Origin: Trissonchulus latispiculum | Lineage: Eukaryota > Nematoda > Enoplea > Enoplida > Ironidae | Direction of reading: 5' to 3' | NCBI GenBank assembly: GCA_030248195.1 | Contig: JASAND010022100.1 | Coordinates: 1 to 64,000, forward strand | DNA length: 64,000 nucleotides | Shown: in pieces, positions 23,131 to 59,770 of the stretch | Numbering within the stretch: position 1 is the stretch's first letter | How the letters are laid out: each line of letters begins with the position of its first letter | Translations under genes and position numbers: made by a program | The notes under the pieces: model-generated | The model's input: only the letters and a program-made list of their open reading frames with translations | Databases searched by the model: none | Told to the model about the DNA's origin: nothing

Positions 23131-23247
23131 ATAGCAATAACAGGACCCTAATTTTAAAATATGAGTATGGTTGCATAAATTTGCACGCTTAAATAGGTTC
23201 ATTATTTAAATTTCGATGCTAGACTTCTTTGCTGACGCTTCTCTCTT

Positions 23248-23393
23248 CTACCTTCTTCTTTTGCCTCCGCCATGTCCACCCATTGCTCTTTTCTGGTGTC
23301 TGATTGCTCGCTTACGAGACATTTCTTCATTTCCTTCAGGATTCATAACAGCGGCAGAATCGAAAGCACCGTCAGCCGCAGCAGGTAGTCCAT
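23248..23393 (-). CDS. Gene A terminal coding exon (KR-AIRHQ-KR)
   Basis: The acceptor is tttatctttcaag; coding is 146 nt, entering in phase 1 and ending TAG at 23248-23250. Residues DGAFDSAA near its start align with DGAVNSAA in gene C, and RKRAIRHQKRA aligns with AKRALRHQKRA. Same coding length as the gene C terminal exon. Confidence 0.8.
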
Positions 23394-26300
23394 CTTGAAA
23401 GATAAAATATTAATATTAGCAGCAATTCAAAATTACCAAACGTTTTTCCAAGCAAACTGCCTAATTCCTGTAATGTTTTGATGGGCTCTGTGTAACTCAG
23501 GCGTCCTTCAAAAACATAAAACTTTCCCAGTTACTTGTGCGCTGATGACAATTACTGTATAGTACGTAAACTTAACCAACTTTTTCCTGAAAGTTTGTTT
23601 GTCAGCGTACAATCTTATATTTTTGGAAGAGTCCGTTGATCTGGTTTATCTGTCTTCAGCTAAATACAACCATAAATGCAACAATAATCAGTGATTGATA
23701 CACCGCTAATTTTATCAAAAGTGTGCTATGCTTCTATAATTTACCTGGTTTGTCCATCATTCCTCTATTTCCTACTGGAATCGCACCAGCTACGGGATCA
23801 GCAACTCTGCCAACTGGTATAGGTAAAAGGCCAACTGGTTCATCTTGAATGGAAAAATCATTAGTATTAGTGGTTTGTAAACTTTCCAAACAAACGGCCT
23901 CACTGTTTAACCATACATTAACACGGGGCCCGATTCTGAAAGGGTCTAATCCAGAAAAAGTTCAAACATTTAAAGGAGTTTACCGCAAAATTAGAAAAAA
24001 TGCTAAGTTTCTGAAGTTTAGCTGAAATTTAGTAAAAAGGGAGTCTTTTGGCGGTTTCTAGGAAATTTTTTGGAAATGTGCTAAAAATATGTTCTTTTTC
24101 CTTCTCACCGAGGGTGCCTACCCGTTGTTTGTCGGTCTGAACACCTCCCCATTCCCCCAGGTTATCCTATGGTTGTAATGCTTACTGCGTTGTGGTACTA
24201 TTTGTATGCTCGGCCTATCAATTGGAGACGTGACGTCAACGTTTCCAAATTTATAAGTCTAACCACTGCTTAGAGTAAAAAGTCCATTGACATATTTAAA
24301 TGTGGTTTAACATTTTCCTTTTAATTAGTCTGAAAAAGCGAAAGTTTTTCTGGACATTCTACAAATTAAGAAACAAGTGCAAATCTTCCGGCCTTTTATA
24401 AACTTAACTTTTCGCCAAACATAATAATTTCATTCGATACCTCTATGAAAAAGCTGAATACTCCTTGTGATTGTTAGTAAACTTACTTCATGTAGTAGGT
24501 GCTACTATATATACTCTAAGACCGATGGCTAAAATTGAACATGCTTTGACAAAACTAAATTTTCAGGCATTGGCCCAGCTCAATGGCCTAGAAATTCGAA
24601 TTTGGAAAATAAAAAGGCCTTCAAATTGAAACCTTTGTTTATTCCAGCAGTTTTATGATACAATAATTAATGCTAATTTGATTGCAGCGAACTTCTGCTA
24701 TTTTTAACAGTATACCAATACTGCTCTATAAATGGCCATCGGGTGCTGGATTGGCTTCTCCAAATCCCAGTTTTGACTGTGTTTATACCTGGGACTAACA
24801 TTTTAAGAGAATTTGCCCATACACGGATATTAACGTAATTTACTTTAACTTTGCGCAACTGGAAGTTAATAGTACCGGAAGTTTGTGGTTCTTAACATGC
24901 ATGAGCAGAATCCGTAATTTTTGGAAAAACTACAAATGGCGGTTAATCGTCATATTGCAAAAAACCAACTAAAAATTTCCAACGAGCCTAAACTGCTTCC
25001 TTTTAGAGCAATAATGCTAAACTTTCCGCTACCATATGTGCTTAACCGTTGGCCCAATTTTCCAGTCCACCTTTCTGTGAACCGTTCCGAAGGTTGGGCG
25101 TGTATTGTGTTGTTGTTGTTGTTGTAGTATTGTTGCTCGGGGAAGTTGGAGCCTTATATTGGCTTCATATCACAATAGCCAAAACTGTTGGGTCTTTCCT
25201 GTTTCGGGTTAAGGCTTTATCTCAGTGACTGTGCATGTGGTAGTTTTTTATTATTTCCTTACAATAGCAAAAATATGGCAAAAAATTTTACGAAAGAAAA
25301 CCAAAGTGTAGAACTTACGAGATTTGTCGAATGAATTCAGTCACAGCTGTGTAACTGCTATACAGCTGAGAAATACAGAGATCCTTCTCAGAAAGAAAAC
25401 GTTGAGTTTTATAGCGTAAAGTTATGCGGATGATAAGCTATACTGGAAACGTTCACCAAATGTCAGCTTGATTCATGAACCGAATGCAGTCACTGTGTTC
25501 TCCATCAGCTGTTAACCATGAGACATAGTTTAAAACTTATTAAAGGAAAGAAGTTTATACCTGCTTCACCCACGATTTGTCCAATGGGTTGTACTACTGC
25601 GTTTTCTTCCACAAGATCTAAATCAGAACAGCTCAGAATTTTTACAAGCTTTGTTCAATGGCTAACCTTTGCATCCTTCAAAACGTTATTATTAATTTCA
25701 GCCTACCAAATTAACAATGGTACCTAATGCAAGACCGAATATCCTAATTTTGGTATTTATGTGCTCTTGACAGAGTACGCGTATAGGAGTGTGGGCAACA
25801 CCGCTGTATGCAATGTGAACCGAAGCTAAGTTCTACTGATCATCCTCACAACCCTACTGCTGCATAGTTTTTGGAATAAATGTGTTGTAACGGATCAAGG
25901 TTGGAATGGTCAACCTTTCCGTTGCAGGCGGTTGTAGCTAGGCTAGCTACCCGCTTGGCTTATCATAACATCATCATGTGGGCTGGGACACGTTTGCAAG
26001 TCACGTAGCTCCCCCAACGTGTATGCGTGGGATTGGGTGGGTTCCCCCCCTCGTGACTTTGGGAGCTACGTGATTTGGGGGAAATTCTCACTAGGGGGCG
26101 CTCGTGGGAGGGTCCAACCCATACACTCGCTCCCCTATTCACTTCTGTATTATTCTGTCAACGTGTGCGCTTGCTATTTATCTGCTATTCTCCCCCATTA
26201 CTGTAAATATTACTGTGTGCCTCCCTCAGCTCTCCCCAGAGCTTGGTACGTTGGCTGACCCCCGTCAGCTCCAGTAACTGTAAGTCAGTGTTTATTGTGT

Positions 26301-29211
26301 GTTTGTTTGTGTTTGTTTGAGGGATCATCCCAGTATTATTATTGTATTGTTATTACTTATAACTTGTTGTTTTGTTCCTAATTAAAGTGTATTTAGTTAG
26401 GTTTGAGTCTTTCTGAGCTCCTGCTAGGTAGGTAGTTACATTCTGAGTGAGTGAGAGTGCGAGTCATCTCGCCCTTAGGATCGGACTATTTACTGCGTAT
26501 ATTGTCTGGCGAGGCTGTCCCGACCGTCTCCTGTAGTCGGTCTGTTATCCATCTGTGCCACGGTCTCCGCGTCCGCTACGTCAGGGCGTGGTAACGGTGT
26601 TAGTACGTAGGTTAAACTACTAGCCCCGCTACAGTGTTGTTAACCGCTCGTATCCTAATAACACGGCATCTGCAAATTTTAAGATAGAATGTAAAAGTCT
26701 ATTGGACGCAAAAGTTACTAATCTTTGTCAGAAATTAGAATCAAGGTTGCCTGGGATCGAAGTTATCAACGAGTAAACATGAATTATGTCACAAACCTGG
26801 GTTAACCTTGCTAACTTTAACCCACAAAGATAACCCGGGTTTAGGCGTTGATAACATCGTTTTCCCAGGTGTATGGATAATTTGTAACTCAGATTACAAT
26901 AATAAGCGGGAGGTGACAATCGAGAGACTTCAATGCAGCCTTTGAGAATTCTGTAGTACTGGGCCCTGTTGCATAAAACTTTTAACAGTCTAACAGTCCA
27001 ACAGTCTAACAGTTCAACAGCGTTTTCCGTTGCATAAAACCTAACAGTGTTAAGGGACTGTTAGACTGTTTTTAGCAGTGTTATAACTGTCCTTTTAACA
27101 CTGTTTTAACAGTGTTTGTTGCATAAAACTCAACACTGTTGATATTAGACTGTTAAAAATGGTCTAACAGTCTAACAAACTTTTGACACTGTTAAAACTC
27201 AAATTAAGCTGCTAATTTCAAATAATGTTGATTAGAATGGCTATTTATGGAAAGTTTAAGGCTATGTCTGATTAAAGGAATGCAAGAGCCACAAAATATG
27301 AAATTTGAATTGTCAAAATTGTCCGAATACCAACTTTATTTTTTAAGTAAGGCTTATTGTAGGTTCACCTTTTCTTTACTACTAAGCCGACAAGTAGCAT
27401 TATCACCAAGACTCTGAGTATTACTAAACGAACAAAATAATTACGTCATAAACAGTATCCCTAATTGATATATAAAATATGATTAAGATTCATTTCATTA
27501 ATATTTATAAGAGATTCCATTACATGCACAGAGCCTTAAACAGGCTGATAGGATTCCTATTACTTGATGTGTAGACTGTTAAATGGACTGATAGAATTTC
27601 TATTGTTTGGCGTGTAGACTGTTATTTGGACTGATAAAACACTGTTAAAATTAGCATCTTTTTAACAGTAGGCTAGTTTTATGCAACGCAAAAGTTCAAC
27701 ACTGTTAATATCAGTCTAACAGTTTAACAGTCTAACAGTGTTAGACTGTTAGCTTTTATGCAACAGGGCCCTGACAAAACTACTTAAATATCATGTCATT
27801 TGTGTATCAGAGCTCCTTGTCTCTCATTTAGCAAATAATTGTTTTCAACTCTTTTTCAACGGTCACCAGGCGAACACCTTGGACAGAGCGCATGGATCTG
27901 AGCTCGACCTCACTGTTGACAAAAGGGGAAAGCAGACAGCTTGTTTGGATCAAGGGACAACTCGGCCTAGACCTTAAAAAATGGGAAAATTGGAAAGCGA
28001 GAAGGATGCGGCTCGGATGGACGAGGATAGCCTATTGTTGGGATGGCGGCAACGGCTCTTAGTGGCTCAGCAGGAGTATGCGGCGGAAATGATAACCTGG
28101 GGGCCAGTTTCATAAAATTTTGTCGAGTCGTCGAGTCGAGAAGCTGATTTACGCTGGAAATGTCGGTGACTTGTGATCCTGAAACGCGAGTACTGTTGAA
28201 AAATAGCTGTTAGTTTTCGAGTCGAGTTCTCTAGTCAAATTTAACTCGAGAACTTTTCAATATAAAAATTTTACTCGACAAATTTTTAGAGAATTTTAAA
28301 AGCTTAATATTTCTACCGTGGAACTATTTTGCATTGTCCTACTAATTACCCCGACCAGAAATTAAACTTCAGTGACTACTGTTTAGTTTTTAATTCCAAA
28401 GAAACAATGTAATTCGAGTAATTGGCTACTCGACGACTCGCGGACTCGACAACTTTTATGAAACTGGCCCCTGGTCACTTTAGTCACTGGCGGTGCTCCT
28501 GGGCCACCGATTGGGACCTCTTGGACGTCATCAGGGCAACCCTTTCCGGCGCCTTTCGAATTGCCACCGGGATCAAAATTAGTGATGGTACCAGCGATTC
28601 TGTTACCAGATGGTCGGTTCATACCCATTGGATCCAGTTTCTCCGGACAGGCCAACAGTGCTCAACCAGCACCACAATCCGTGGGTCTAACTGAGAAACT
28701 ATAGATACATTGTCAACCTGGAAAATGCTTGGAACATTGGTTAAACTGCTTTAGCTAGTGTGCTAGTTTTAGTTTGTTTTAATTGCTTCCTACTGTATTT
28801 GAGATTTGTGGTTACATGAATTATGTTATTTTGAACGGGGACGTTCACACTTTCAAAGACGGGAGGTGTAACACTAAATCCAGGCTTTGCTAGTTTTAGT
28901 TTTTGTATTTATTAAAAGATTAGAAAAGAAAATGCAGGAAATGAGGTTCTTGCACTTTTTGTTTCTGGTGGCTGAAGTCACAACATAGGCTGTTGGATTT
29001 CGGGTTTTGTTGTGACTGTCTGTAGCTCGAGTTGAGCAAAGTATGTGACATTAAACCTCTTCTGATTGCCGTGCGCTTGTTCTCTGTTCAGCGAGAATTG
29101 AGCACTACATAAGCTCTTTCTTTTACCGAGTCGTTGCCTCCTCTTACCTTGGGCATGGACAGCAATAGTAAAAAGGACCAGCAATAAAATCGTTAGATGC
29201 TTAAAATGCAT
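23248..29211 (-). CDS. Gene A: secreted cassette-exon prepropeptide (5-6 coding exons)
   Basis: Inferred coding exons, in transcript order: 29211-29148 (signal peptide), 28660-28607, optionally 28552-28508, 25617-25561, 23843-23745 and 23393-23248. The joined frame is 139 aa, or 154 aa with the optional exon. Every intron falls after the first base of a codon (phase 1), so each internal exon (54, 45, 57, 99 nt) can be skipped or added without frame change. The product begins with an obvious signal peptide (MHFKHLTILLLVLFTIAVHA). It continues with Gly/Pro/Val-rich spacers and ends with RKR-AIRHQ-KR-AMGGHGG-GKRRR. Dibasic sites suggest proprotein-convertase processing in the secretory pathway; this is an inference. 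Gene C is a clear paralogue with the same exon order. Function is unknown. Introns contain a solo LTR and several MITEs. Confidence 0.75.
23745..23843 (-). CDS. Gene A cassette exon (99 nt, phase 1-1)
   Basis: The acceptor is tttttccattcaag and the donor G/gtaaattat. It encodes a 33-residue Pro/Val/Gly-rich segment (EPVGLLPIPVGRVADPVAGA, then IPVGNRGMMDKP), with an internal echo of the P(I/V)PVG motif. No counterpart was found in genes B or C. Confidence 0.75.
23911..24172. mobile_element. MITE with CCATA...TATGG ends
   Basis: Termini are CCATACATTAACACGGGG on the left and CCATAGGATAACCTGGGGG read inward on the right. A second member with the same ends lies at 29697-30036. Internal sequence is AT-rich with no coding potential. 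It sits in the intron of gene A between the 57-nt and 99-nt exons. Confidence 0.6.
24180..25550. other. Gene A intronic sequence
   Basis: AT-rich sequence between cassette exons. A short GTT trinucleotide run lies at 25107-25126. I see no further splice-supported exon. Confidence 0.4.
25561..25617 (-). CDS. Gene A cassette exon (57 nt, phase 1-1)
   Basis: The acceptor is ctgttctgatttag and the donor G/gtataaac. It encodes LVEENAVVQPIGQIVGEA, ending in G(E)A-G like the gene C exon at 52951-53010 (VDEA-G), which holds the equivalent position. Confidence 0.75.
25886..26633. mobile_element. Solo LTR (748 bp) with 4-bp target duplication
   Basis: Starts TGTAAC and ends GCTACA, so the termini are the inverted TGTA/TACA expected of an LTR. 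It is flanked by GTGT on both sides (25882-25885 and 26634-26637). A hairpin is formed by tcacgtagctccc (near 25995) and gggagctacgtga (near 26060). No internal retrotransposon sequence adjoins it, so it is probably a product of LTR-LTR recombination. The family (Ty3-like is possible from a 4-bp duplication) is uncertain. Confidence 0.7.
26961..27771. mobile_element. MITE with GGGCCCTGTTGCATAAAA ends (811 bp)
   Basis: Perfect inverted termini GGGCCCTGTTGCATAAAA. The first and last 180 bp are filled with 'taacagtctaacagt'-type repeats in both orientations, so the ends can fold extensively. The centre is unique AT-rich sequence. It lies in an intron of gene A. Confidence 0.8.
28101..28470. mobile_element. 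MITE with GGGCCAGTTTCATAAAA ends (370 bp)
   Basis: Inverted termini begin GGGCCAGTTTCATAAAA and continue with 'gtcgagtcg' motifs. It is flanked by CTGG on both sides (28097-28100 and 28471-28474). The ends resemble those of the 26961-27771 element. It lies only 37 bp beyond the optional gene A exon ending at 28508, so the neighbouring intron was recently altered. Confidence 0.75.
28508..28552 (-). CDS. Possible gene A cassette exon (45 nt, phase 1-1)
   Basis: The acceptor candidate is aattcgaaag and the donor ATCG/gtggcc. It encodes AGKGCPDDVQEVPI. The whole interval 28508-28660 is open in one frame, so retention of the 54-nt intron between this exon and the previous one (giving a 153-nt exon) is equally possible. 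Both splice sites are weaker than those of the other exons. Confidence 0.4.
28607..28660 (-). CDS. Gene A cassette exon (54 nt, phase 1-1)
   Basis: The acceptor is gctggttgag and the donor G/gtaacaga. It encodes LLACPEKLDPMGMNRPS. It has the same length as the gene C exon 54146-54199 and shares the PMG(L/M) core at the same place, so the two are homologous. Confidence 0.7.
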
Positions 29212-29233
29212 TTGTTCAGCTTGAATCGATAAC
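29148..29233 (-). CDS. Gene A signal-peptide exon
   Basis: Acceptor tcgtttgcag/gttatcga and donor G/gtaagagg. The ATG is at 29211-29209 and 21 codons plus one base follow. The N-terminus is basic-polar, then LTILLLVLFTIAV, then a small-residue site (HAQ-G), a typical signal peptide. The same exon with near-identical protein and flanks is in gene B. Confidence 0.85.
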
Positions 29234-30036: not shown

Positions 30037-30170
30037 AACTGATACAACTTGTAATTGAAACATAACCAGCTGATGTTTAGCAAAAAATGGAATTGAATTC
30101 TTGAAGAATAAGTTTTCGACAATATATCTGTCAAGTCCTCAACATTAGTTTATTAAATGAGATAACTTAC

Positions 30171-30205
30171 TCGAATACAAAGTCAATCTTAATACGTTGA
30201 AGTGG
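30171..30205 (-). other. Gene A leader exon 1 (5' UTR)
   Basis: The donor is CGA/gtaagttatc, identical in genes B and C. The 5' edge is set about 25-30 nt below the TATA box and is approximate. The segment resembles the gene B leader (gtatccact-caacgtat). Confidence 0.55.
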
Positions 30206-30228
30206 ATACACGGGCTAAATTGTTCTGT

Positions 30229-30450
30229 CTTTTATATGTTTTAGTGAGCGGGGGCAACGGTGGAATTTGGTCCAATCTGGTGCAGAAGGAATGTTAAGAT
30301 GAATAGGACTGAGTGGGGTGCACTCAGTTTCAGTGAATTCAACTGCATTGTTAGACACTGAAATATTTGCTAACAGATTGCACTCACTCCGACATGAACA
30401 GAATGTATGGTATATTTTTTGTGAATTGTTCGAAACACGTATTCAGAAGC
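30229..30450 (-). promoter_or_regulatory. Gene A core and proximal promoter
   Basis: A TATA box (ATATAAAAG) lies at 30229-30237. Roughly 220 bp upstream of it are conserved with the promoters of genes B (38550-38760) and C (56070-56290), including the 'gggggcaacg', 'gaatgg(g)actg' and 'agacac' blocks. The conservation outside coding DNA suggests shared regulation. Confidence 0.7.
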
Positions 30451-36880: not shown

Positions 36881-37274
36881 TACAGCTCCTTCGCAGCAAC
36901 TCCCCCAAACCCCAATGAACGTACCTAGAGCATACAAAAACACCAGGTAGGTTCATGTCAGAAAATACCCAATTTTTAGCGGGGATTTCGCACCTTTTTC
37001 GGATGAACAGGTGGTTCATGCAAATCAAGCTTATGCTGTTTTTATCCCTACGCATGCGGATATCATGGTGGGAGAAAGATATGGAAATTCTCAAGGAAAT
37101 TCCCGCAATTTACTTCAGTAACTGCTACTGCTTACAGCCTTAGCTGTACCAGGTTTGCAAAATATTGATATGGGCAGATTGGTAAATGTTTTGACCAACG
37201 CCCGCACCCACATTTAATTCCTCGATCTCCTCAGAATATGACTGGACAGTAGCAAAATGCTTTGATGATCAACT

Positions 37275-37880
37275 GTGCAACCTCTACAATTGCACAAGCA
37301 CATTCAGTGTCACGAAAATTCCGATAAAATACTTATGCAAAGAAAGTGCCCGCGGTTACTCCTACCTAAGGAAGATCCGACTGAACCACCTGCAAACTTT
37401 TTGGAGACACTACCTGAGCCGATTAGAAATGTCTACATTCGAAATTGGGAAAACATAGGACAAAATTCAAACTACTATCTATTCCGCCGGGTATCTATTC
37501 TACCCGCCGGGCCGGGTATCTATTCAACCTACAACTTTCGTTTGGAAAACGCTAGGGAATCTAACCTCAAGAAGCTCCTCTACACAGTTTTCAATGCTCA
37601 ATTCTACTCTATCAAAGTTAATTTCTCGTTTGGTTTCATTCTTAAAAATGTTTTGGACCATGAGTTGGCTTTCTATTATCCTTCAAATAACAACCACTAC
37701 CTAGAAGAACCTAAATTTATTGGAAATAGGGAAGACTTGGATGAACTTAATCCAGAGTTTGATAGGATGGATGTACTGGAGTGGGCCCGGCTGCAGAGTC
37801 CTACCACAAAATGGATGGTTGCAGGGGTTACCAGTATTTGTTTCTTTGTATATAGATTGACTGGGTATACTATGCACTAG
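37275..37880 (+). CDS. Unidentified 201-codon open frame, probably element-derived
   Basis: This is the longest open frame in the window. The open frame starts at a GTG; the first in-frame ATG is at 37335, giving 181 aa. The C-terminal half reads like a real folded protein: NFSFGFILKNV, YYPSNNN, DVLEWARLQSPTTKWMV, then a Phe-rich strand. A short in-frame duplication (cgccgggtatctattc) lies near 37483-37525. I have an impression of similar proteins recurring in invertebrate genomes, but cannot name a family. It follows gag-like sequence on the same strand, so an origin in the same element is plausible. Confidence 0.45.
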   Translation: MQPLQLHKHIQCHENSDKILMQRKCPRLLLPKEDPTEPPANFLETLPEPIRNVYIRNWENIGQNSNYYLFRRVSILPAGPGIYSTYNFRLENARESNLKKLLYTVFNAQFYSIKVNFSFGFILKNVLDHELAFYYPSNNNHYLEEPKFIGNREDLDELNPEFDRMDVLEWARLQSPTTKWMVAGVTSICFFVYRLTGYTMH

Positions 37881-38549: not shown

Positions 38550-38768
38550 CTGAATTTGTGTTTCGAAGCATTCACAAAACATACCAGGCATGTACTCTTA
38601 ATACCAGGATGAGCGCAATTTGTTAGCAAATATTTTAGTGTCTAACAAAGCAGTTGCATTTATTGAAATCCAACTCCTTCCCACTCAAACCTATTCATAT
38701 TAACATACCTTCTGCGCCATATTGGAATAAATTCCACCATTGCCCGCGCTCACTAAAACATATAAAAG
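38550..38768 (+). promoter_or_regulatory. Gene B core and proximal promoter
   Basis: TATAAAAG at 38761-38768. The upstream sequence is the reverse-oriented equivalent of the gene A promoter: 'gtgtctaacaa', 'ctattcatattaacat', 'aaattccaccattgcccgcgctcactaaaacata'-type blocks correspond one to one. Genes A and B are thus divergent, about 8.5 kb apart. Confidence 0.7.
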
Positions 38769-38789
38769 ACAAGAAAATTTAGCCAGTGT

Positions 38790-38823
38790 ATCCACTCCAA
38801 CGTATCCAGATTTTCTTATTCGA
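38790..38823 (+). other. Gene B leader exon 1 (5' UTR)
   Basis: Ends in CGA/gtaagtta, as in genes A and C. The 5' edge is estimated from the TATA box. Confidence 0.55.
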
Positions 38824-39220
38824 GTAAGTTATCCTATTTTACAACCTAATATAACGTATTGGATTGATGTGTAGCGTGTAGTATTCAAGCATGCAATGTT
38901 CTTATTCGCCAAACATCAGGTTGTAATGTTCCAATTAGAAGTTGTATCTGCAGCAGCTCCACACAAGGCAGAATACCCCCACAAGTCGTAACCAAGCAAG
39001 GGAGGAAGATTGGAAATCTGAAACTAGCTAAATTGTAAAGTTAAATTATACTTAATCTGATCCTCCTCTGGCGACTAATAAACAACCAACGCACAACGGA
39101 GGCTTAAAATATTGTTAATCATCCACTGCCATTTTACTGGGAGTTAGTCAAACTGAAATTTTAATACTTAATATCTTCTTCACAATCTTTACGTTTGAGA
39201 TCAGGAGGGTTAAAGAGCAG

Positions 39221-39304: not shown

Positions 39305-39390
39305 GTTATTGATGCAAGTTGAAGACATGTATTTCAAGCATCTAACGATTTTATTGCTAGTTATTCTTACAATAGCTGTTCATACTCAAG
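39305..39390 (+). CDS. Gene B signal-peptide exon
   Basis: Acceptor attgtgttgtag/gttattga and donor G/gtaagagg. ATG at 39327, 21 codons plus one base. Closely similar to the gene A exon in sequence and exon length (86 nt in both). Confidence 0.8.
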
Positions 39391-42300: not shown

Positions 42301-42652
42301 AATACGGGACGTACGGTTTAATACGGTACAGAAAAAGTTGTACCGTATAACACGGTACGTACCGTTTAATACAGTACGAAAATTGCCGTACCGTATTACA
42401 CGGTACAAAATCTCATACGTACGTAACATGTACATCGCATTTCTTTGCGCAGGTGGTATAGTTGATTCTGTTGCTGCTGCTGGAGGTTCTGTCGGTGGTG
42501 GGGGATCCATCGGCGATAAATTAAGTGGCGGTGGTTCTGTCGGTGGTGGAGGATCCATCGGCGATAAATTAAGTGGCGGCGGTTCTGTCGGTGGTGGTGG
42601 ATCCGCGGGCGATGTAATAAGTGACGATGGTTCTGCTGGTAAAGATAAATGA
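39327..42652 (+). CDS. Gene B: secreted GGGS-repeat protein (2 coding exons)
   Basis: Coding exons 39327-39390 and 42453-42652, joined in phase 1, give 87 aa. An in-frame upstream ATG at 39312 would add five residues. The signal peptide (MYFKHLTILLLVILTIAVHT) is nearly that of gene A. The mature part is Gly/Ser-rich with a 16-residue repeat (GGGSVGGGGSIGDKLS). It ends in GSAGKDK and lacks the dibasic sites found in genes A and C. The start of the last exon (VDSVAAAGGSVGGGG) aligns with VDGAVNSAAGGFVGGG of gene C, so B is a shortened, repeat-expanded paralogue. No cassette exon was found in its 3.1-kb intron. Confidence 0.7.
40030..40225 (-). repeat. Partial copy of the 60.5-62.0 kb element
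   Basis: Contains 'ctgcatctaagggaatt', 'aaaattttttagctaacgaaa' and 'gcaagctataaggctgt', matching 60730-60895. It lies in the gene B intron. Confidence 0.6.
40985..41032 (+). repeat. AAATT-type pentamer microsatellite
   Basis: Imperfect runs of 'attaaattaa' and 'gttaaattaa'. Confidence 0.6.
41126..42431. mobile_element. 1.3-kb composite foldback in the last intron of gene B
   Basis: Outer arms (41126-41340 and about 42265-42431) are inverted copies rich in 'taccgta' and 'tacggtac' words, with identical ends acatgttacgtac. Inner inverted pairs exist too, for example 'tgtcgtttccgacaaaac' (near 41379) with its partner near 41836. Another pair is formed by sequences near 41610-41750 and 42095-42225. 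The element ends 21 nt before the acceptor of the gene B terminal exon. Confidence 0.75.
42453..42652 (+). CDS. Gene B terminal coding exon
   Basis: Acceptor catttctttgcgcag, entry in phase 1, stop TGA at 42650-42652. A 48-bp unit (about 42488-42620) is repeated nearly three times. The mirrored minus-strand Pro-rich frame is a shadow. Confidence 0.75.
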
Positions 42653-43801: not shown

Positions 43802-44518
43802 TTGACCGTCCTCCAGTGGAACGCAGGAGGAATAAACAGGAAGTCCGTGTAGCTAGCTCATGGTCTACTGCGTGAACGGGTAGATGTGGGAATGATACAA
43901 GAAACTCAACTGAAGACAATCTCCATACCTCCCAAGCTCACTGGATATTCGGTGGAAATTATGAACAGGAGAACAGGCAGAGCGCATGGACAGGTGAAAG
44001 GAGGAAGTGTGCTCACACTCATCAGAAACGGTCTCAGCTACTCGAGGATAAATGCACCTCTGGTGCGTGCAACCGACCATTTAGCTGACGCGCTTACCAT
44101 CAAGTTCCACCTTGGTCAGCAATCTCTCACGCTGGTCAACGTCTATGTGCCACCAATCCAGAGACAGAATGAAGAAACCAGAATTCACCGTTTTGATCTG
44201 CACAGTCACCCGGTGGGCCCTAACGTAACGATTTTAGGTGACTTCAACGCACATTCACCGGTCTGGGAACCGAACCGGCCAGGAGATGACGTTGGAGAAT
44301 TGATCGAAGACTTTATGGTCTTATCGGACATGATGGTTCTCAACAGTGGGGAAGTCACGAGATCGCCAGTAACTGCAGCGGAGCGTGGCACGTCTACGGA
44401 TTTGACCATTTACCGCAGCCAAGGTGAATTGCCTCTCCTAGAAGCCGCTGCAAAATATGCTGTCAGATTATCTGCCACTGTTAATCCAGCTGAAGATCCT
44501 ACCCAAACGAACGGATGA
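43802..44518 (+). pseudogene. LINE APE-type endonuclease
   Basis: Reads LTVLQWNAGGINRKS at the start (stop at about 43850), then IQETQL with the catalytic Glu, GGSVLTLIRNGL, LVNVYVPPI, ILGDFNAHSPVWEP and RGTSTDLTIY. These are the ordered motifs of LINE endonucleases. The open part is 43886-44518. Confidence 0.8.
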
Positions 44519-50259: not shown

Positions 50260-51400
50260 TAACGATATGATTGGTCAATGGTCCAGAAGCTCCCGTGGGC
50301 AACTTCAGGTGGATGACAGGTGGATGGCCAACTTGGAGCAATAGCGAGACTTTTCGTGCATCCTTGAAGTTGACCCTGACTACCCACAGCATCTACACAA
50401 CACCCACAATAACTTCCAACTTGCACGGGAGAGAATTAGCATTAGTGAGCAAATGATATCACCATATAGTAAGGAACAAGGAGGGTACATGGGTTGTGCG
50501 AAGTTAGTGCCTAATTTACACAAAAGACTCGTTACATCGTGTACAAGCATACCTTATAGCAATACATAAACCAGGTATTAGTGTTAAGAATGCGCATAGG
50601 AGTAATCTTTGAGGAGGAGGGGTAAATAGAGCCCTACATTGAGTTGAATATGGTTAAGAGGACAGCGTGCGAAAAGTAAGTTTGACAAGATCTTTAAAAC
50701 TAATAAACAATGCGGTATTTGGGAAAACAAAGGAGAATGTCAGTAATCAGAGTTAACAACGTAGAGAAGTTTGAGAAGTTGGTTGCTAATCCTAGGTACA
50801 AGGCGTGCGAAGCATTTTCTGAAGACCTGGTGCCGATGCAGAAACGTACAGTAAAGCTATGCAAACCCGTATATGCAGGATTTACTGTACTTGAACTATC
50901 AAAATACCTCAGGAACAACTTTCACTATAACTACAAGAGACAGAAATTCGGTGATGGGGTTAGCTTACTGTATACAGATGTGGACAGCTTTTGCTACCAT
51001 GTGATAACAACGTGATCAGAAATATGAGAGAGGACATTAACATATTCGACACCAGCAGCTACCCTAAGCATAGCAGCGCTAACAAGACGGTGGTAGACCG
51101 GATAAAGGATGAAGGGTAAGCCAATAAGCGACTTCGTAGGATTAAGGTCAAAGATGTACAGAATCAGGTGCGAAGGTGACAATAAGACAGCAAGAAAGCG
51201 CCTCATGTCAGTCAGATTTCAGGCGAATATTATTACACGGCGTAGGAGTCGGTATATAATGAATAATATTGATAGAAAGGGCTATCAACTAACTACAGTA
51301 CACTGCTGCAAGACAGGATTCAGTGCCTTTGATGACAAACATTACATACTAGACGTTTGTATCAATTCACTTGCATATGGACCTGTATTGATTGATTGAA
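50260..51400 (+). pseudogene. Maverick/Polinton-type DNA polymerase B relic
   Basis: Frame-disrupted stretches carry conserved protein-primed PolB features in order: an EVDPDYP..LH block and a KLVPNLH block near 50370-50520, an NNAVFGKT-type block near 50703-50735, and YTDVDS at 50971-50988. VGLRSKMY follows near 51128. Several stops and shifts separate them, so it is non-functional. No integrase, ATPase or capsid frame is found nearby, and terminal repeats are not visible. An origin from a related virus-like element is equally possible. Confidence 0.75.
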
Positions 51401-52330: not shown

Positions 52331-52476
52331 CTACCGTCTTCTTTTAATTTCTTTCGACGCAGCCGCGGCTCTTTTCTGATGTCGAAGTGCTCTCTTCGCA
52401 AATCCTGCTCCCCCACCAACGAAGCCCCCAGCCGCAGAATTAACAGCACCGTCAACTTGACCTTCGACTGCGCGTG
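52331..52476 (-). CDS. Gene C terminal coding exon (KR-ALRHQ-KR)
   Basis: Acceptor catttctatttag, 146 coding nt, TAG at 52331-52333. VDGAVNSAAGGFVGGG is followed by the processed-looking basic tail. Confidence 0.8.
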
Positions 52477-54796
52477 CTAAATAGAAATGAACACCAATTG
52501 TTTCCAATTTTTAGCACGGTTCTCACAGCAATTCCATGAAAAATTCCTTGATAGCAAATAATTGGTTCAATTGTGTATGTGCATAATCAAAAGTTTTTCA
52601 GCAAATAAAAGTGTGGCAAGCGTCACATTGCAGTTAGTTAGTTAGTTAGTTAGTTAGGTGATTGCCACAAATTAATTCACATTTAGTTTAGCTAAGCTCG
52701 TCTAGGTCTTGCCAAGTTTCTAAAACATACAGTTTACACAGTTCAAGCTTTCTACAGGTTCATTTGAACATGCTACTGATTTGTCGGCAGTAAACATTCC
52801 TGCTTTGATTAACTGTTTATTTTGACCAATAATGCGTAAACGACTGGCTCTTGTGCTATAAGACCAGTATACGAAAACTGTCAAATTGATCAAAACTGTC
52901 AAATAACCCATCCCAGTTGGAACGGTTTATCAGAAGAAAAATCTTTTTACCTGCTTCGTCTACCATCCTTCCAGCTTTTTCGACCATCCCAAGCCCATTC
53001 GCCAATCCGTCTAAAATGACACAATCGAAAACAAGTCTTGCCTGTGAGCAATCCGATGTTTCTTGCAACTTGACTTAATTACTTCAGCCAGCAAACTATT
53101 TCCGTTGAAATTGTAAGAGGCATTAGCAATTGAGAGAATTGATATTGACACGTAGGTACTAGAGAAACGGAACTAGAGGATTTTGTCTGGATTGACTTGA
53201 GGCATAACTTTGAAAATAAAGAGGGACTACGACGCGAAATTGCATGCTACTTTTATAAAGCTGTCAAAATTAACCAATAGAATTCCTTATACGATTCTTT
53301 AGGCGATTAAGAATGTGATTTGAAATTAGTTAAAATTGAACAGCTTTTCAGTGTGCAACTAGTTTCCTGGTTTCGCTAGTTTGGGAATATTAGCACCTAT
53401 CTCAGGTTATCGTATTCGTGTCTGGTTATCGTATGATTGAATTGTATATGCCAAACATATACCTTCTGAATATACCTGCTGACAAGAATTTCGGTACCAG
53501 ACTATGTTTGACTAGCAGTACACTCCGAATTTCAGTCCTCCACTGAATTAAGATTTTTCTGATGTTGTAAGCAAAGACATTTTCAACTTTCTCTCATTCT
53601 TCGATTTTGAGGTGCCCGGGGAACCAAACTTTCAGTGTATGTGTGAAAGAAATGTTAGAACAATTAACCATTAGTGACGCATTTCATCACCTGCAATCCT
53701 GCTGCTGCAGCTGCACTCAATAAGATGCGTTATATTGCGTGAATTGATAAGCGAGGTGTCCCAAACTGTTGGTGACGACTAATTGAAGATTAGACAGGTA
53801 TGGGTAGAAGTAAAGCCGAGCAAGAGGAGTTTATTAGTCAATGTTTATATCGGCGATTAACTTAAGTGTTTACGCAACGCAAATGTTGGATTAGAAAATG
53901 TTGTGAAAGATAATTGATCATACTTGTGCCTCCTAATGCGCTCCCTGCACCATTATCACCGCCCTGTTCACCTAAAAGCATAATGTAGCTGAGTTACAGA
54001 TATTTTTTCTAATAAGTATCCAAATGCCATCTTTACCTCGATATTGCGTATTTTACATGGCGCATAGTGGAGTCATTATGCAGAATCGTCTTCTAAAGTC
54101 CTACTCACAACACGTATTCTCACCTATTATTCAGCTGTTACGCACCTGACTTTGATTTTCCGAGGCCCATAGGTGAACCGCCCTCTCCCATCAATCCTGC
54201 TTCAAACATAAAGACATCGTAAGCAGAACGCTACAAAGGTTAGCCTTAATTTAAGCGGCTTAATTTATTGCTAGCATATTTGTTTTGCATATTTATATTT
54301 TGTAGCATAAGCTGCTACGGTATATGAATCCTAAAATATTGATTTTAAAGTAGTTATGTTCTTGATATCTTGTCCAGTGCACGAATCGGCGGTGTCATCA
54401 AATGCGGTAAATGACGTCTGTAGGTACAAACTACGTATCTGAATACTTTTGTAACTAAGTATTGTTTAAGAGTTAAAGAAGTCTTAGGTTGAGTTTTCAA
54501 ATTGTCGATGGTTTGCAGTAGTAATTTTGGATACTACGCAACACCGGAGCGCTAATGTGCTGTTTCGGCTATGTGGAGCAATTTTCCCAACATTTCAAAA
54601 GTCTTGTCAATCAATTCTTGCGTCAACAACTTGCACTTGCAATAGTAGCAACAAAAAATGAAGCAGAAAATATTTTTGTCATATTACTACAATTTAACTG
54701 CAATAATAGCTGTAATACTACTTTGTTACCTTTAGTGTGGCCAGCAATGGTGAAAGCCAACAACATGAAAACAGTTAAATGGTTGCTGAAATGCAT
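52331..54796 (-). CDS. Gene C: secreted cassette-exon prepropeptide (5 coding exons)
   Basis: Coding exons 54796-54730, 54199-54146, 53971-53924, 53010-52951 and 52476-52331 join into one frame of 124 aa. All four introns are in phase 1 and the internal exons are 54, 48 and 60 nt. The signal peptide is MHFSNHLTVFMLLAFTIAGH. Gly/Ser/Met-rich spacers follow, and the tail has AKR-ALRHQ-KR-AAAASKEI-KRRR. The dibasic cuts would release short peptides including ALRHQ; this is an inference from the motif. Order, phase and two exon lengths agree with gene A, and TATA promoter, leader donor and 3' UTR are also shared. Function is unknown. Confidence 0.8.
52621..52660 (+). repeat. GTTA tetranucleotide run
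   Basis: About six units of 'gtta' (agttagttagttagttagtt) in a gene C intron. Confidence 0.7.
52720..52802 (-). CDS. Possible alternative terminal exon of gene C
   Basis: After acceptor-like ttaatcaaag the sequence enters in phase 1 and reads GMFTADKSVACSNEPVESLN then CVNCMF and stop (83 nt). It would fit onto the upstream phase-1 donor and give a Cys-containing C-terminus with no dibasic site. The polypyrimidine tract is poor. Confidence 0.3.
52951..53010 (-). CDS. Gene C cassette exon (60 nt, phase 1-1)
   Basis: Acceptor gattgtgtcattttag, donor G/gtaaaaag. Encodes GLANGLGMVEKAGRMVDEA. Confidence 0.75.
53015..53915. other. Gene C intronic sequence
   Basis: No further convincing exon. A 'ctgcagcagcaggattgcag' segment near 53701 looks like a broken cassette (it starts like the 54146-54199 exon) but its length does not keep frame. 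Confidence 0.35.
53924..53971 (-). CDS. Gene C cassette exon (48 nt, phase 1-1)
   Basis: Acceptor cattatgcttttag, donor A/gtatgatc. Encodes GEQGGDNGAGSALGGT with the first residue formed across the junction. Confidence 0.7.
54146..54199 (-). CDS. Gene C cassette exon (54 nt, phase 1-1)
   Basis: Acceptor ctttatgtttgaag, donor G/gtgcgtaa. Encodes GLMGEGGSPMGLGKSKS, the counterpart of the gene A exon at 28607-28660. Confidence 0.75.
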
Positions 54797-54823
54797 TTGT
54801 TCAGCTTGTATCGAATCGATAAC
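54730..54823 (-). CDS. Gene C signal-peptide exon
   Basis: Acceptor attctgctacag/gttatcga and donor G/gtaacaaa. ATG at 54796-54794, 22 codons plus one base, one codon longer than in A and B. Confidence 0.8.
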
Positions 54824-54909
54824 CTGTAGCAGAATTGTTAAGCGAATAATTCAGGTAAATTATGTTAGTAAAACATGTCCAAAATTTATTAATAATTTCG
54901 AAATTTAAT

Positions 54910-55990
54910 TTTAAAAACCTTGACATTTTGACACTGAGAGTTATCAAAGCAAATTGTGCAGAGAAGATACTAATTACTTATAGATACCTGTCATCAAGTA
55001 TCTTAGTTTGCCAAACTCGCTGACTGAAATAAAACAGATAGTAGTGAGAATGCCTAGTCTGTCAGTTAAGCCTTAAGTAGAAATTCCTAATTGAGTGAAG
55101 GCTAGAGTTAACACTTTCACTGAAAGTTTGATTTCCCAACATTCCCATTGTCATTCGTTGTCTGATACCCATTTTGGATAGAGTTTTCTCTATGCGGTCA
55201 TCTCTATGCAGTTTTCTCAATGCAAAGTCGTTCAGTTAGTCTCAAAGACAACTGTATTTAGTCAAAACATTTTTGCGTTTTTATCCTGTAACTCTTTCCA
55301 ATCAAGTAAATTGAGCTGGCACTGCTTCGGTGTGTGGAAGAAAATTGTTCTCAAAACCTGCAATAATTTCCATAGCTGGGTTTGGAACTGCAGCTTACTT
55401 TCCAGCTCCCGCGGCTTTGCGCCGGAATGCCATACTCCGAGACGATACGTGCTGTGGTTTCCCAAGAATTTGCTGGCGCAGTTTGAAAATTATTGTCTAA
55501 CTACTAAACGCTTAACCTTAAGTTAAATTTAAGATCCATTCCGTCACTCCATAATGAACAACGGGAATGATCGTGCAAGAAAGAGGTGGAGTGTGGAGTG
55601 GTTGCTTACTAAAATCATTTAGAGCATTGCGCCCCGCGCTGATTAAAAAACACAAAGCTTTAACGCATTGTTATGTTCCTTTCTCCCCCTCTAGACATCA
55701 ATTGTATATGAGGTAAGAAAAGCCGCTTTCGGATAAAGCAATGGACAATCGTTCGTTGTAAGGGCGCGGTTACGGACAAGTCTTCAGTACAAAAGGCATC
55801 GAGTACTTGTAAAGACAATACCTCTATGTTAGCAAGACCCAGTGAGTCCTCAATAACATCACAACTGAACTGACACTACGCACCCCTGGTATAATATATG
55901 GACTGGAGCGCGGCAAAAAAGCAGTAAGCTGAAAATCATGGTTTTCCAATAACGCGAAACTCAGTGGTTTACAGATAGTTATAAAAAATG
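54910..55990. other. Gene C first intron
   Basis: No separate gene is recognised. The plus and minus open frames near 55206-55526 overlap each other and show no family features. Confidence 0.35.
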
Positions 55991-56003
55991 AATGTTAACT
56001 TAC

Positions 56004-56036
56004 TCGGATTTAAAGCCAATCTATGCTCCTTAGAGT
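56004..56036 (-). other. Gene C leader exon 1 (5' UTR)
   Basis: Donor CGA/gtaagttaac as in genes A and B; 5' edge estimated from the TATA box. Confidence 0.55.
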
Positions 56037-56060
56037 GGGTATTCTGATAAAAGAATCATA

Positions 56061-56290
56061 CCTTTTATATGCTTTGACTTGTGGGGGCAACGCTGGTATT
56101 TCATCCAAGATGTTGCAATAGGAATTTCAGTATGAATGGGACTGCGTGGGGCAGAGATTGATTTACACAAATTTAGCTGCATTCTCAGACACAAAAAATT
56201 TGCCTACAGATGTACACTCGCCATGCCACGAGTGTTAGACGGCCTCCGTCTATTAGAAACTCACAAAACCTTTCAAAGCCAATAAAACAA
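56061..56290 (-). promoter_or_regulatory. Gene C core and proximal promoter
   Basis: ATATAAAAGG at 56061-56070, with upstream 'gtgggggcaacgctgg', 'gaatgggactgcgtgggg' and 'cagacac' blocks that match gene A in order and spacing. Confidence 0.7.
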
Positions 56291-57894: not shown

Positions 57895-57905
57895 CAGTCT
57901 GATAA

Positions 57906-58303
57906 TTAAACTACAGTAAATTTCTTCAGGCCGTTTAAATTATACTCATCATCACCCCAAAGGTCCTGGCGTTGCTAAAACAAGGTTAACATAAAGCTAA
58001 TATGATTAAAACATTAACAGAAACAGCTTATTAAAATTAATTTCAGATATCACAGCTTTCAATAAGTAAAAGTGAAACATGTTGCAATAAAAATTAAAGA
58101 ACTCAAGATTTTGTTTGCAGTTTTGATTTCATTCTGCTGCTGTGCTATACTGCAAGCTCTGCTAGTTGTTTATCTGTGCAGCATTGCTAAAATCAGCAGT
58201 GCTTAATGCTTAAAAGTTTGGGTTTTGCAAGACCATACCGTACTTCTAAACAGTATCTTTTCTCGCAATCGTCGAGCGACATCAGGGTTCACCGGGGTGT
58301 AAT
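57906..58303 (-). CDS. Last two exons of an unidentified minus-strand gene
   Basis: Exon 58303-58239 (acceptor ctaatttgtttcag, donor ACG/gtatggtc) enters in phase 1 and leaves in phase 0. Exon 57974-57906 (acceptor accttgttttag) is entered in phase 0 and stops TAA. The frames agree. Together they encode YTPVNPDVARRLREKILFRS, T, QRQDLWGDDEYNLNGLKKFT and VV. The tail is charged, with no Cys. Upstream exons were not found; the phase-1 entry matches the donors used in the cassette family. Confidence 0.6.
57980..58230. other. Intron between the two terminal exons
   Basis: 264-nt GT-AG intron (57975-58238), AT-rich, no other feature. Confidence 0.5.
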
Positions 58304-58812
58304 CTGAAACAAATTAGTATAAATAAGTTCCTATGTGCATACATATGTCGTGAGTTAAAGTGTTTTATAAAACTATGTGTTCGCAAAAAATTTTGCGTAA
58401 AGCTGTGATCACGAAGAGCTGTTGCGTAAAAACTAGGCTTAAGCAAGGAAATTTGTGCAGTCGTGTTAAATTAAAATTCTGCTATAGAAACGTTTTGAGA
58501 AATTACTGATCTTTCCTTTTAAGTATATTAGAACATAGTTTCAGTCCCTTTGTACTTGCAATTTAAATCAGTTACTGTTTAGTCTTTAGCTAATAGAGTT
58601 TACTTTACAGTTTACACCAAACTTGAAATATATCCGCTCTGCCTTATTTTTGTTTGTTGATTTTGCAAACTTCGTACTACTTCGTCTAAGCGATAAACGG
58701 ATATCCGGCATTTTTAAACCGGATATTATCCAAACATAAAATTATCCGCATAGCCGTATATACAATGCCCATCCCTGATTCAAATTGCATGAACAACCTG
58801 CTAGAAATTAAT

Positions 58813-59118
58813 GTCTGACACAAAAATGTGTGTACAAAATCTGTAAGGCCTCCGATTTTTTTCGTTTTTGTGTCAATCGATGCGTCTTCGGACGGGAAAA
58901 TTTTTCCGAAAGAATGAGCTGAATAGCTTGAACGGTCCGAACAAATTCCCCGAAAAACCGATATTTTAAAATTTTTGAAATTTTAAAAAAATTTAAATTT
59001 TATAAAAATGTTTGTCTCGCTGCAAGGATTCCGAAAATATATGGTTTTATGGAGTTACGACGTATATTGAGTTCACTGGAGGCCTTACAGATTTTGTACA
59101 CACATTTTTGTGTGAGAC
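58813..59118. mobile_element. 306-bp MITE with 41-bp inverted ends
   Basis: The terminal 41 bp (58813-58853 and 59078-59118) are reverse complements with one mismatch; they start GTCT(G/C)ACACAAAAATGTGTG. The interior is AT-rich with short mirrored words. No clear target duplication. Confidence 0.8.
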
Positions 59119-59212
59119 TTTAGTTCTAATGCACTCTATAGAAAACGCGCATCTGTTAAATATTAGCAACCCAGAAAGGTTGAAATTAGTGTAAAATAAA
59201 CTAATCTCAACA

Positions 59213-59286
59213 TCCGGGGACGTGACGCAGGTGGTAAAGCGTTCTACTCTTAATCCAAAACTCAGCGGTTCGATCCCCGCCCTGGA
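59213..59286 (+). tRNA. tRNA-Lys(CTT)-like sequence, probably pseudogene or SINE head
   Basis: Acceptor halves TCCGGGG and CCCTGGA pair, a D-arm GGTGGTAAAGC and B box GGTTCGATCCC are present, and the anticodon loop reads CTCTTAA. The anticodon stem and T stem pair poorly, so a functional tRNA is doubtful. Confidence 0.45.
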
Positions 59287-59654
59287 CACTTTTCTTCACA
59301 TCTTGCAAGCCTGATTTCAACCTTTCTTTCACAGAGCAATTTCTCAAAACCTAAAAACTAATTTTTGACACTATTACGCACATACTTTTGGCTAACCCTA
59401 GTTTTACGCCAGTTCTAACATCTATAATATCTAACATCAAACTTATCAAGCTCAACTACATAAGCATAAAGCAACTTCAGGCTATAAGCAAATACAAACC
59501 AACTTCTCAGCTCATCACTAAAGCACACACCATATTATCATGATTTCTGAATGCTATTTTAACAGGAAGGAAGACTTAGCTCAAGACATGTTCATTGTTC
59601 ATGCTTTAAGTGAAAGTGAATTAGACATTATGGAAAAATTGTAAATAAACTTCC

Positions 59655-59770
59655 TTATGCCATACTTCGCCCCCATCCTTGCCAGCTCGATTGCTGGCCG
59701 CGTTGAGCCTCAGGTCCACCCCGGCCCATCCATGCAGCGGCGGCTCCACTTGGTCCTGGTCTACCTGGTG
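59655..59770 (-). CDS. Terminal exon encoding a Gly/Pro/Trp-rich tail
   Basis: Acceptor tatatttactttatag, phase-1 entry, 116 nt, stop TAA. Reads PGRPGPSGAAAAWMGRGGPE followed by AQRGQQSSWQGWGRSMA. The first part is collagen-like. Its entry phase would fit the cassette-family donors; upstream exons were not found. It could be an alternative terminal exon to the 57.9-58.3 kb pair. Confidence 0.5.

What the first reader, a model, noticed from the sequence alone, without database searches (positions are those of the whole stretch)
52331..56070. A mosaic gene family of secreted peptides built from phase-1 cassette exons
Gene C reads as one 124-aa frame from five exons. All four introns are phase 1 and all internal exons are multiples of three, so any subset can be spliced without breaking frame. 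Gene A repeats the plan with homologous first, second and last exons but different middle exons, and gene B drops the middle entirely. Symmetric cassettes behind a constant signal peptide look like a system for generating diverse secreted peptides, in design reminiscent of micro-exon genes of parasitic flatworms. I do not recognise the family.
Basis: partly seen in the sequence, partly recalled or inferred. Interest (0 to 1): 0.9.

Follow-up and report, generated by a model that had tools for sequence, protein, structure and literature searches.

The report
Three-gene mosaic family of secreted peptides
In an unnamed, probably animal genome, three neighbouring genes share a promoter and a secretion-signal exon, and two of them a basic tail, but carry different middle exons, so they probably make fast-diverging secreted peptides; nothing yet shows that they are a splicing machine for diversity.

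Summary
The gene structures hold up. Gene C (minus strand) reads as one 123-aa frame (not 124) through five coding exons with four phase-1 introns, plus a TATA box and a 5'UTR exon. Gene A shares promoter, UTR exon, signal exon, last-exon tail and 3'UTR with C. Gene B shares about 1 kb with A, promoter to signal-exon donor, then probably ends in a Gly/Ser-rich exon. Later introns do not align between genes. Signal peptide and a KRA[I/L]RHQKRA tail look conserved as protein, on few, partly hand-picked codons. In the 734-Mb assembly the exact promoter pattern occurs 3 times and the tail pattern twice, all on this contig, backward controls 0. Phase-1 introns are the commonest in signal-peptide proteins (PMC1626468, passages), so symmetric exons alone do not indicate alternative splicing. 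Two published micro-exon-gene criteria are not met. Best reading: a small local family of secreted peptide precursors whose middle exons turn over between fixed 5' and 3' modules. Frame-safe skipping is possible (8 of 8 and 4 of 4 exon subsets) but undemonstrated. Function, host and expression are untested.

The parts
55992..56254 (-). Gene C core promoter with TATA box (56062-56071) and 5'UTR exon ending at 56004 (CGA|GTAAGTTA); transcription start not determined
   Evidence: Aligned with A and B; blastn E 3e-16 to A, 7e-15 to B; coordinates; genome-wide pattern hit
54730..54823 (-). Gene C signal-peptide exon; ATG at 54796, 27 nt of 5'UTR before it; phase-1 donor
   Evidence: blastn E 7e-11 to gene A
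54146..54196 (-). Gene C internal exon 2 (51 nt, phase 1-1, GLMGEGGSPMGLGKSKS); an acceptor 3 nt upstream (from 54199) would add one Ala
53924..53971 (-). Gene C internal exon 3 (48 nt, phase 1-1, GEQGGDNGAGSALGGT); weak donor
52951..53010 (-). Gene C internal exon 4 (60 nt, phase 1-1, DGLANGLGMVEKAGRMVDEA)
   Evidence: resembles A exon 2 as protein, p 0.0015 before correction for 28 pairs, but not as DNA
52331..52476 (-). Gene C last coding exon (146 nt) with 21-aa basic tail KRALRHQKRAAAASKEIKRRR and stop; AATAAA starts 42 nt after the stop
30141..30419 (-). Gene A promoter, TATA 30229-30238, 5'UTR exon ending at 30171
29148..29233 (-). Gene A signal-peptide exon, ATG at 29211
25561..25617 (-). 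Gene A exon 2 (57 nt, phase 1-1, DLVEENAVVQPIGQIVGEA); least certain exon of A
   Evidence: resembles C exon 4 as protein; not recovered by the scans
23745..23843 (-). Gene A exon 3 (99 nt, phase 1-1, DEPVGLLPIPVGRVADPVAGAIPVGNRGMMDKP; the scan prefers an acceptor at 23813, 69 nt); possibly a copy of the 5' part of the last exon
   Evidence: nhmmer match to the last-exon profile E 0.00068 in the window, 0.0011 in the contig; DNA shuffle p 0.002, protein p 0.053
23248..23393 (-). Gene A last coding exon (146 nt) with 21-aa basic tail KRAIRHQKRAMGGHGGGKRRR and stop
38577..38852 (+). Gene B promoter, TATA 38759-38768, 5'UTR exon ending at 38823
39305..39390 (+). Gene B signal-peptide exon, ATG at 39327
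42453..42652 (+). Gene B probable terminal exon: GGIVDSVAAAGG, then 48-nt repeats (about 3.1 copies) coding for Gly/Ser-rich 16-residue units, ends GKDK*
   Evidence: Best-scoring phase-1 terminal exon in B; tandem repeat; link to the C last exon: DNA p 0.001, protein p 0.17, nhmmer E 0.4

Best explanation
A, B and C are a small local family, born by duplication, of genes for secreted, cysteine-free, low-complexity peptide precursors. Shown by sequence: all three have the same promoter, 5'UTR exon and signal-peptide exon; A and C also share the end of the last exon, a 21-aa basic tail (net +9); the exons between differ, and one (A exon 3) looks like a copy of part of the last exon. Inferred: because every coding junction is phase 1, exons can be gained, lost or swapped in evolution without breaking the frame, so the middle turns over while expression and secretion stay fixed. 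Inferred: in A and C, prohormone-convertase-type cleavage at the conserved Lys-Arg pairs frees a short peptide A(I/L)RHQ, or leaves the basic tail as the active part. B has lost (or never had) the tail and makes a Gly/Ser-rich protein. Regulated exon skipping may occur but is not needed to explain the structure.
For: Shared promoter, UTR exon and signal exon, and in A and C tail and 3'UTR, with later introns not aligning between genes. A vs B similarity stops 9 bases past the signal-exon donor. Signal peptide A-B pS 0.47, pN 0.08 over 21 codons; KRA-x-RHQKRA in A and C pS 0.73, pN 0.04 over 10 codons. Tail 21 aa and +9 in both; the part before it -10 (A) and -2 (C); no Cys in any of the three, no Trp or Tyr after the signal peptide. 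A exon 3 matches the last-exon profile. Exact promoter pattern 3 times, exact tail pattern twice in 734 Mb, all on this contig, backward controls 0. A conserved signal peptide, variable mature part, KR site, 5'UTR exon and phase-1 intron occur together in mussel myticalins (PMC5577615, passages).
Against: No RNA or protein evidence. Codon counts are very small; the 10-codon tail stretch was chosen because it looked conserved, and one codon of C was dropped to align the signal peptides (A-C pS 0.63, pN 0.23; B-C 0.70, 0.25). The tail lacks the repeated amidated copies typical of neuropeptide precursors (recalled), and the stretch between the second KR and KRRR differs between A and C. Gene B's 3' end rests on one candidate exon, and no AATAAA was found in the 500 nt after its stop. 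A exon 2 is weakly supported. The 3'UTR is nearly as similar as the coding tail (74% over 89 nt, about 74 of them beyond the stop, against 83% over 29 nt), so not all constraint is on protein. Homologues in other species could not be sought: the protein database was off.
Confidence: 0.5

Rival explanations
1. A true alternative-splicing diversity system: symmetric cassettes are combined in the transcript pool to give many secreted variants per gene, working like schistosome micro-exon genes.
For: All 8 C and all 4 A exon subsets stay in frame without internal stops. C exon 3 has a weak donor (0.4 bits) and C exon 4 a weak acceptor (0.9 bits), as skippable exons often do (recalled); C exon 2 has a second acceptor 3 nt away.
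Against: Frame compatibility follows from uniform phase 1, which is common in secreted proteins. At most 3 cassettes in C and 2 in A. Three genes in the assembly by the exact promoter pattern. No transcript data.
Confidence: 0.15
2. Cationic antimicrobial precursor: an acidic or near-neutral propiece is cut off at KR to free the +9 tail as a microbe-binding peptide.
For: Charge split -10/+9 in A and -2/+9 in C; signal peptide conserved while the rest varies, as in myticalins (passages).
Against: Each tail has only two large hydrophobic residues (read from the sequence) and is itself interrupted by a KR site; B has no tail; the charge split in C is slight.
Confidence: 0.15
3. Structural secretion (matrix, mucus, adhesive or mineral-binding protein): Gly-rich disordered stretches with a basic end that binds a polyanion or polymer, expressed in one gland.
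For: Gly content after the signal peptide 41% in B and 25% in C; 48-nt repeats in B; shared promoter suggests shared expression.
Against: A is only 15% Gly; a conserved pentapeptide between KR pairs would be unusual for a structural protein; no Tyr or Cys for cross-linking.
Confidence: 0.2
4. Partly decayed locus: one gene is functional and the others are remnants, so some mosaic differences are degradation, not design.
For: Transposon-derived sequence lies in the same window and introns carry repeats; B has no AATAAA within 500 nt; A exon 2 was not found by the scan.
Against: Frames of A, B and C are open with conserved TATA boxes, donors and signal peptides; pN is well below pS between A and B signal peptides.
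Confidence: 0.12

Closest known systems
Micro-exon genes (MEGs) of parasitic flatworms
   Same: Secreted products; symmetric exons; frame-safe exon skipping possible
   Different: Internal exons are 48-99 nt rather than 6-36 bp, at most three, no run of four; no splicing evidence; host not shown to be a flatworm
Myticalins / modiocalins (mussel linear cationic peptides)
   Same: 5'UTR exon, intron close before the ATG, conserved signal peptide, KR site, phase-1 intron, variable mature region (PMC5577615, passages)
   Different: Myticalins have a basic centre and an anionic C-terminal extension, three exons, and Pro/Arg-rich mature parts; here the basic part is C-terminal and there are extra internal exons; no sequence comparison was run
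Casein genes CSN1S1 / CSN1S2
   Same: Non-coding first exon, second exon with the UTR end plus signal peptide, many short exons, exon-skipping variants (PMC12470106, passages)
   Different: Casein junctions are phase 0 and the family is vertebrate (both recalled); no sequence comparison was run
Shematrin-like shell matrix proteins (recalled only)
   Same: Gly-rich secreted proteins with a basic C-terminus
   Different: Shematrin tails end in Tyr (recalled); no sequence comparison was possible

Membership tests
Micro-exon genes | About 80% of the coding region in symmetric exons of 6-36 bp (PMC5825161) | tested here: not met
   Internal exons 51, 48, 60 nt (C) and 57, 99 nt (A); none of 36 bp or less
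Micro-exon genes | At least 7 exons, half or more of them under 70 nt and divisible by 3, with a run of at least 4 (PMC7653826) | tested here: not met
   C has 6 exons including the UTR exon and a run of 3; A has 5 exons and one qualifying exon, or two with the 69-nt version of exon 3
Micro-exon genes | Secreted or surface-exposed product | tested here: inconclusive
   N-terminal hydrophobic segment, KD13 of 2.3-3.2, and none above 1.3 later; no signal-peptide predictor was available
Micro-exon genes | Protein variation by exon skipping | not testable with these tools
   No RNA data; frame compatibility only
Dibasic-cleaved peptide precursors (neuropeptide or AMP type) | Signal peptide | tested here: inconclusive
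   Hydropathy and conservation only
Dibasic-cleaved peptide precursors (neuropeptide or AMP type) | Conserved peptide flanked by KR sites | tested here: met
   KR-A(I/L)RHQ-KR in A and C; absent in B
Dibasic-cleaved peptide precursors (neuropeptide or AMP type) | Cleavage in vivo | not testable with these tools
   Needs peptidomics
Any family in Pfam, NCBIfam or the PDB | Profile or sequence match | tested here: not met
   Pfam: C has three matches, all below cut-off (best E 0.038), A and B none at E 1; NCBIfam: none for A and C at E 1, B not sent; PDB: none for C at E 1, best for A E 0.76, B not sent
Myticalins | Sequence similarity to myticalin precursors | not tested
   Protein database switched off

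The most novel reading that the evidence does not exclude
The cluster is a compact combinatorial secretion locus: constant promoter-plus-signal and constant tail modules frame interchangeable phase-1 cassettes, and the animal makes a mixed pool of secreted peptides by skipping cassettes and, over evolution, by copying exons (part of the last exon into A exon 3) between the fixed ends, with A(I/L)RHQ a previously undescribed signalling peptide.
Probability: 0.12. Interest if true: 0.65.

Novelty: new member of a known kind. Interest (0 to 1): 0.36.

Why it matters
It is a compact worked example of how a secreted-peptide gene can keep promoter, signal exon and tail while what lies between is replaced, with phase-1 junctions as the enabling feature. 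The three genes sit on one contig and have diverged enough to tell constrained from free sequence. If splicing or cleavage were shown, it would give a new secreted peptide, A(I/L)RHQ, to test. As it stands it is a three-gene family without known relatives, of unknown host and function.

Tried and rejected
Strict splice-site thresholds recovered only exon 2 in C, only the 69-nt version of exon 3 in A and nothing in B; looser thresholds were chosen afterwards, and phase 2 gives as many candidates in C as phase 1, so the scan is supporting evidence only. A micro-exon-gene label was rejected on exon size and number. A membrane-active helix in the tail was set aside for lack of hydrophobic residues (read from the sequence, no computation of a moment). 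A fourth member upstream of C (57.9-59.8 kb, minus strand) was considered: two phase-1-compatible exons (67% and 47% GC) and a last exon that would be phase 0, but no signal exon in the window and no DNA match to the promoter, signal exon or last exon of A, B or C (E up to 0.5: short, mostly low-complexity matches and a repeat shared with B's intron); not counted.

The other 36.6 kb of the contig holds no further copy by the promoter, signal-exon and last-exon profiles. Viral contigs searched with protein C (19 pattern matches, none confirmed) and genome contigs with protein A (273 pattern matches, none confirmed) gave no relatives, as expected for a eukaryote. In the own genome, protein C at E up to 10 gave 7 matches: its five exons and two chance-level places on other contigs (E 1.2 with stops inside, and 7.0). 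Protein A at E 0.001 gave 3 of its 4 exons and neither B nor C, and the A promoter as DNA gave A and B but not C, so more distant copies can be missed.

Papers: a text search for RHQKR gave one paper, on human Rho kinase, judged unrelated from its listing. The other answered searches listed 12 of 205, 12 of 13 and 3 of 3 papers; by title and start of abstract none described this family; I opened passages of four papers through these searches or by DOI beyond them five in all: PMC5825161, PMC7653826, PMC5577615, PMC12470106, PMC1626468. No structure prediction was made.
Full report
WHAT IS THERE. The window is the first 64,000 bases of a 100,591-base contig in a 733.8-Mb assembly of 21,732 contigs. 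Spliced genes and transposon remains (an endonuclease-reverse transcriptase frame at 43853-44518, Pfam E 6.7e-9) mark it as a eukaryote, probably an animal (inference).

The four coding introns are phase 1 and the internal exons are 51, 48 and 60 nt. A 5'UTR exon ends at CGA|GTAAGTTA, 68 bases from the start of the TATA motif, and the next exon starts at 54823, 27 bases before the ATG. So C has six exons.

GENES A AND B. A (minus strand, 30.2-23.2 kb) has four coding exons, 121 aa; its last coding exon is 146 nt, as in C. B (plus strand, 38.8-42.7 kb) has the same promoter, UTR exon and signal exon; its best downstream exon codes for GGIVDSVAAAGG and Gly/Ser-rich repeats, 87 aa in all. A and B are divergent; B and C converge.

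IS IT MORE THAN CHANCE? A and B align in three pieces, about 1.05 kb in all (spanning 1.5 kb of A and 1.0 kb of B), from upstream of the promoter to 9 bases past the signal-exon donor (E 1e-102, 6e-50, 1e-7). A and C align in promoter plus UTR exon (3e-16), signal exon (7e-11) and tail end plus 3'UTR (9e-10). Those E-values are for one region against another; C against the whole window gives 4e-10, 0.001 and 0.005 for signal exon, last exon and promoter of A. Of 11 introns compared at E 0.01, the only matches between genes are A and B intron 1; A introns 1 and 3 share a repeat. Between the A and B signal peptides pS is 0.47 and pN 0.08 over 21 codons; A-C and B-C, with one codon of C dropped, give 0.63/0.23 and 0.70/0.25; the 10 codons of KRA-x-RHQKRA in A and C, picked because they looked conserved, give 0.73/0.04; seven codons of DGAxxSAA give 0.38/0.13. 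This points to coding constraint on very few sites. The exon scan adds little: strict thresholds found one of three C exons, loose ones all three, and two of them are open in phase 2 as well.

EXON RELATIONSHIPS. Among 28 exon pairs, A-last/C-last is clear (protein p 0.0005 and DNA p 0.001, both the floor of the shuffles). A exon 2/C exon 4 is suggestive as protein (p 0.0015, about 0.04 after correction) but is not among the ten best DNA pairs, whose tenth has p 0.17. A exon 3/A-last (DNA p 0.002, protein 0.053) and C-last/B-last (DNA p 0.001, protein 0.17, in a Gly-rich stretch where composition may mislead) are also only suggestive. A profile of the last exons of A and C picks A exon 3 at E 0.00068 in the window and 0.0011 in the contig. 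So one cassette may have arisen by copying part of the last exon.

GENOME-WIDE COUNT. The exact promoter-to-donor pattern occurs three times in the assembly (A, B, C) and the degenerate KRA-x-RHQKRA pattern twice (A, C); backward-pattern controls are zero. Protein C at E up to 10 finds its own five exons and two chance-level places. Sensitivity is limited: the A promoter as DNA finds A and B but not C, and protein A at E 0.001 finds neither B nor C, nor its own exon 2. Several other searches did not complete.

HOW IT PROBABLY WORKS. Shown: constant 5' module in all three, constant 3' module in A and C, different middles. Inferred: one expression programme, secretion, and an evolutionarily free middle made possible by uniform phase-1 junctions. 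The 21-aa tail carries net +9 in A and C, against -10 and -2 for the part before it; B after its signal peptide is -3. The KR-A(I/L)RHQ-KR unit suggests convertase cleavage (specificity recalled, not tested).

WHY THE DIVERSITY-MACHINE READING IS NOT ESTABLISHED. Every exon subset of C (8 of 8) and A (4 of 4) keeps the frame, but that follows from phase uniformity. In proteins with signal peptides phase-1 introns are the commonest, with an excess near the cleavage site that has been linked to proto-splice sites in Gly codons, or to exon shuffling (PMC1626468, passages). With two or three cassettes and three genes the possible repertoire is small.

COMPARISON. Micro-exon genes are described as having about 80% of the coding region in symmetric exons of 6-36 bp (PMC5825161, passages), and in a tapeworm study were called from at least 7 exons with runs of at least 4 exons under 70 nt (PMC7653826, passages). 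Neither is met. UTR exon, intron close before the ATG, conserved signal peptide, KR site, phase-1 intron and a hypervariable part are reported for mussel myticalins (PMC5577615, passages). Caseins have a non-coding first exon, a signal exon and short exons with skipping variants (PMC12470106, passages). These are likenesses of plan; no sequence relation was tested. Pfam, NCBIfam and PDB gave no credible match for what was sent. The protein database was off.

VERDICT. A real, small family without relatives found here, with a neat mosaic structure; a new member of a known kind. Interest is moderate because function, host and transcripts are unknown.

Noticed in passing
57900-59770, minus strand: Possible separate gene upstream of C: a 67% GC exon coding APGRPGPSGAAAAWMGRGGPEAQRGQQSSWQGWGR, then YTPVNPDVARRLREKILFRST, then QRQDLWGDDEYNLNGLKKFTVV*; last junction would be phase 0, no signal exon in the window.
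   Followed up: partly
23174-23247 and the matching stretch below 52331, minus strand: The 3'UTRs of A and C stay about 74% alike for some 74 nt beyond the stop codon, nearly as conserved as the coding tail; a regulatory element is possible.
   Followed up: no
37269-37880, plus strand: Open frame of 203 codons with no Pfam match at E 1.
   Followed up: no
41120-41300 and 42270-42430, plus strand: Copies of a self-complementary GTACCGTATTACACGGTAC-like repeat; the second group lies just before B's terminal exon.
   Followed up: no
26960-27770 and 28100-28470: Two palindromic elements with ends like GGGCCCTGTTGCATAAAA and GGGGCCAGTTTCATAAAA, MITE-like by eye, inside gene A's long intron 2.
   Followed up: no
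L009:700-4300 (contig 94700-98300): GC-rich stretch (47-50% against about 35-42% in the bins before it) with long Pro/Ser-rich open frames near the contig end.
   Followed up: no
50707-51012, plus strand: Frame that by eye reads like a fragment of a B-family DNA polymerase of a Polinton-type element; no DNA polymerase family is among the five that one search lists for 79 open frames.
   Followed up: no
window, open frames scanned: Three weak Pfam matches (GIY-YIG, P53, WH_Egal; E 0.005-0.007) to single open frames that the output does not name; ten frames re-scanned were not the source.
   Followed up: partly
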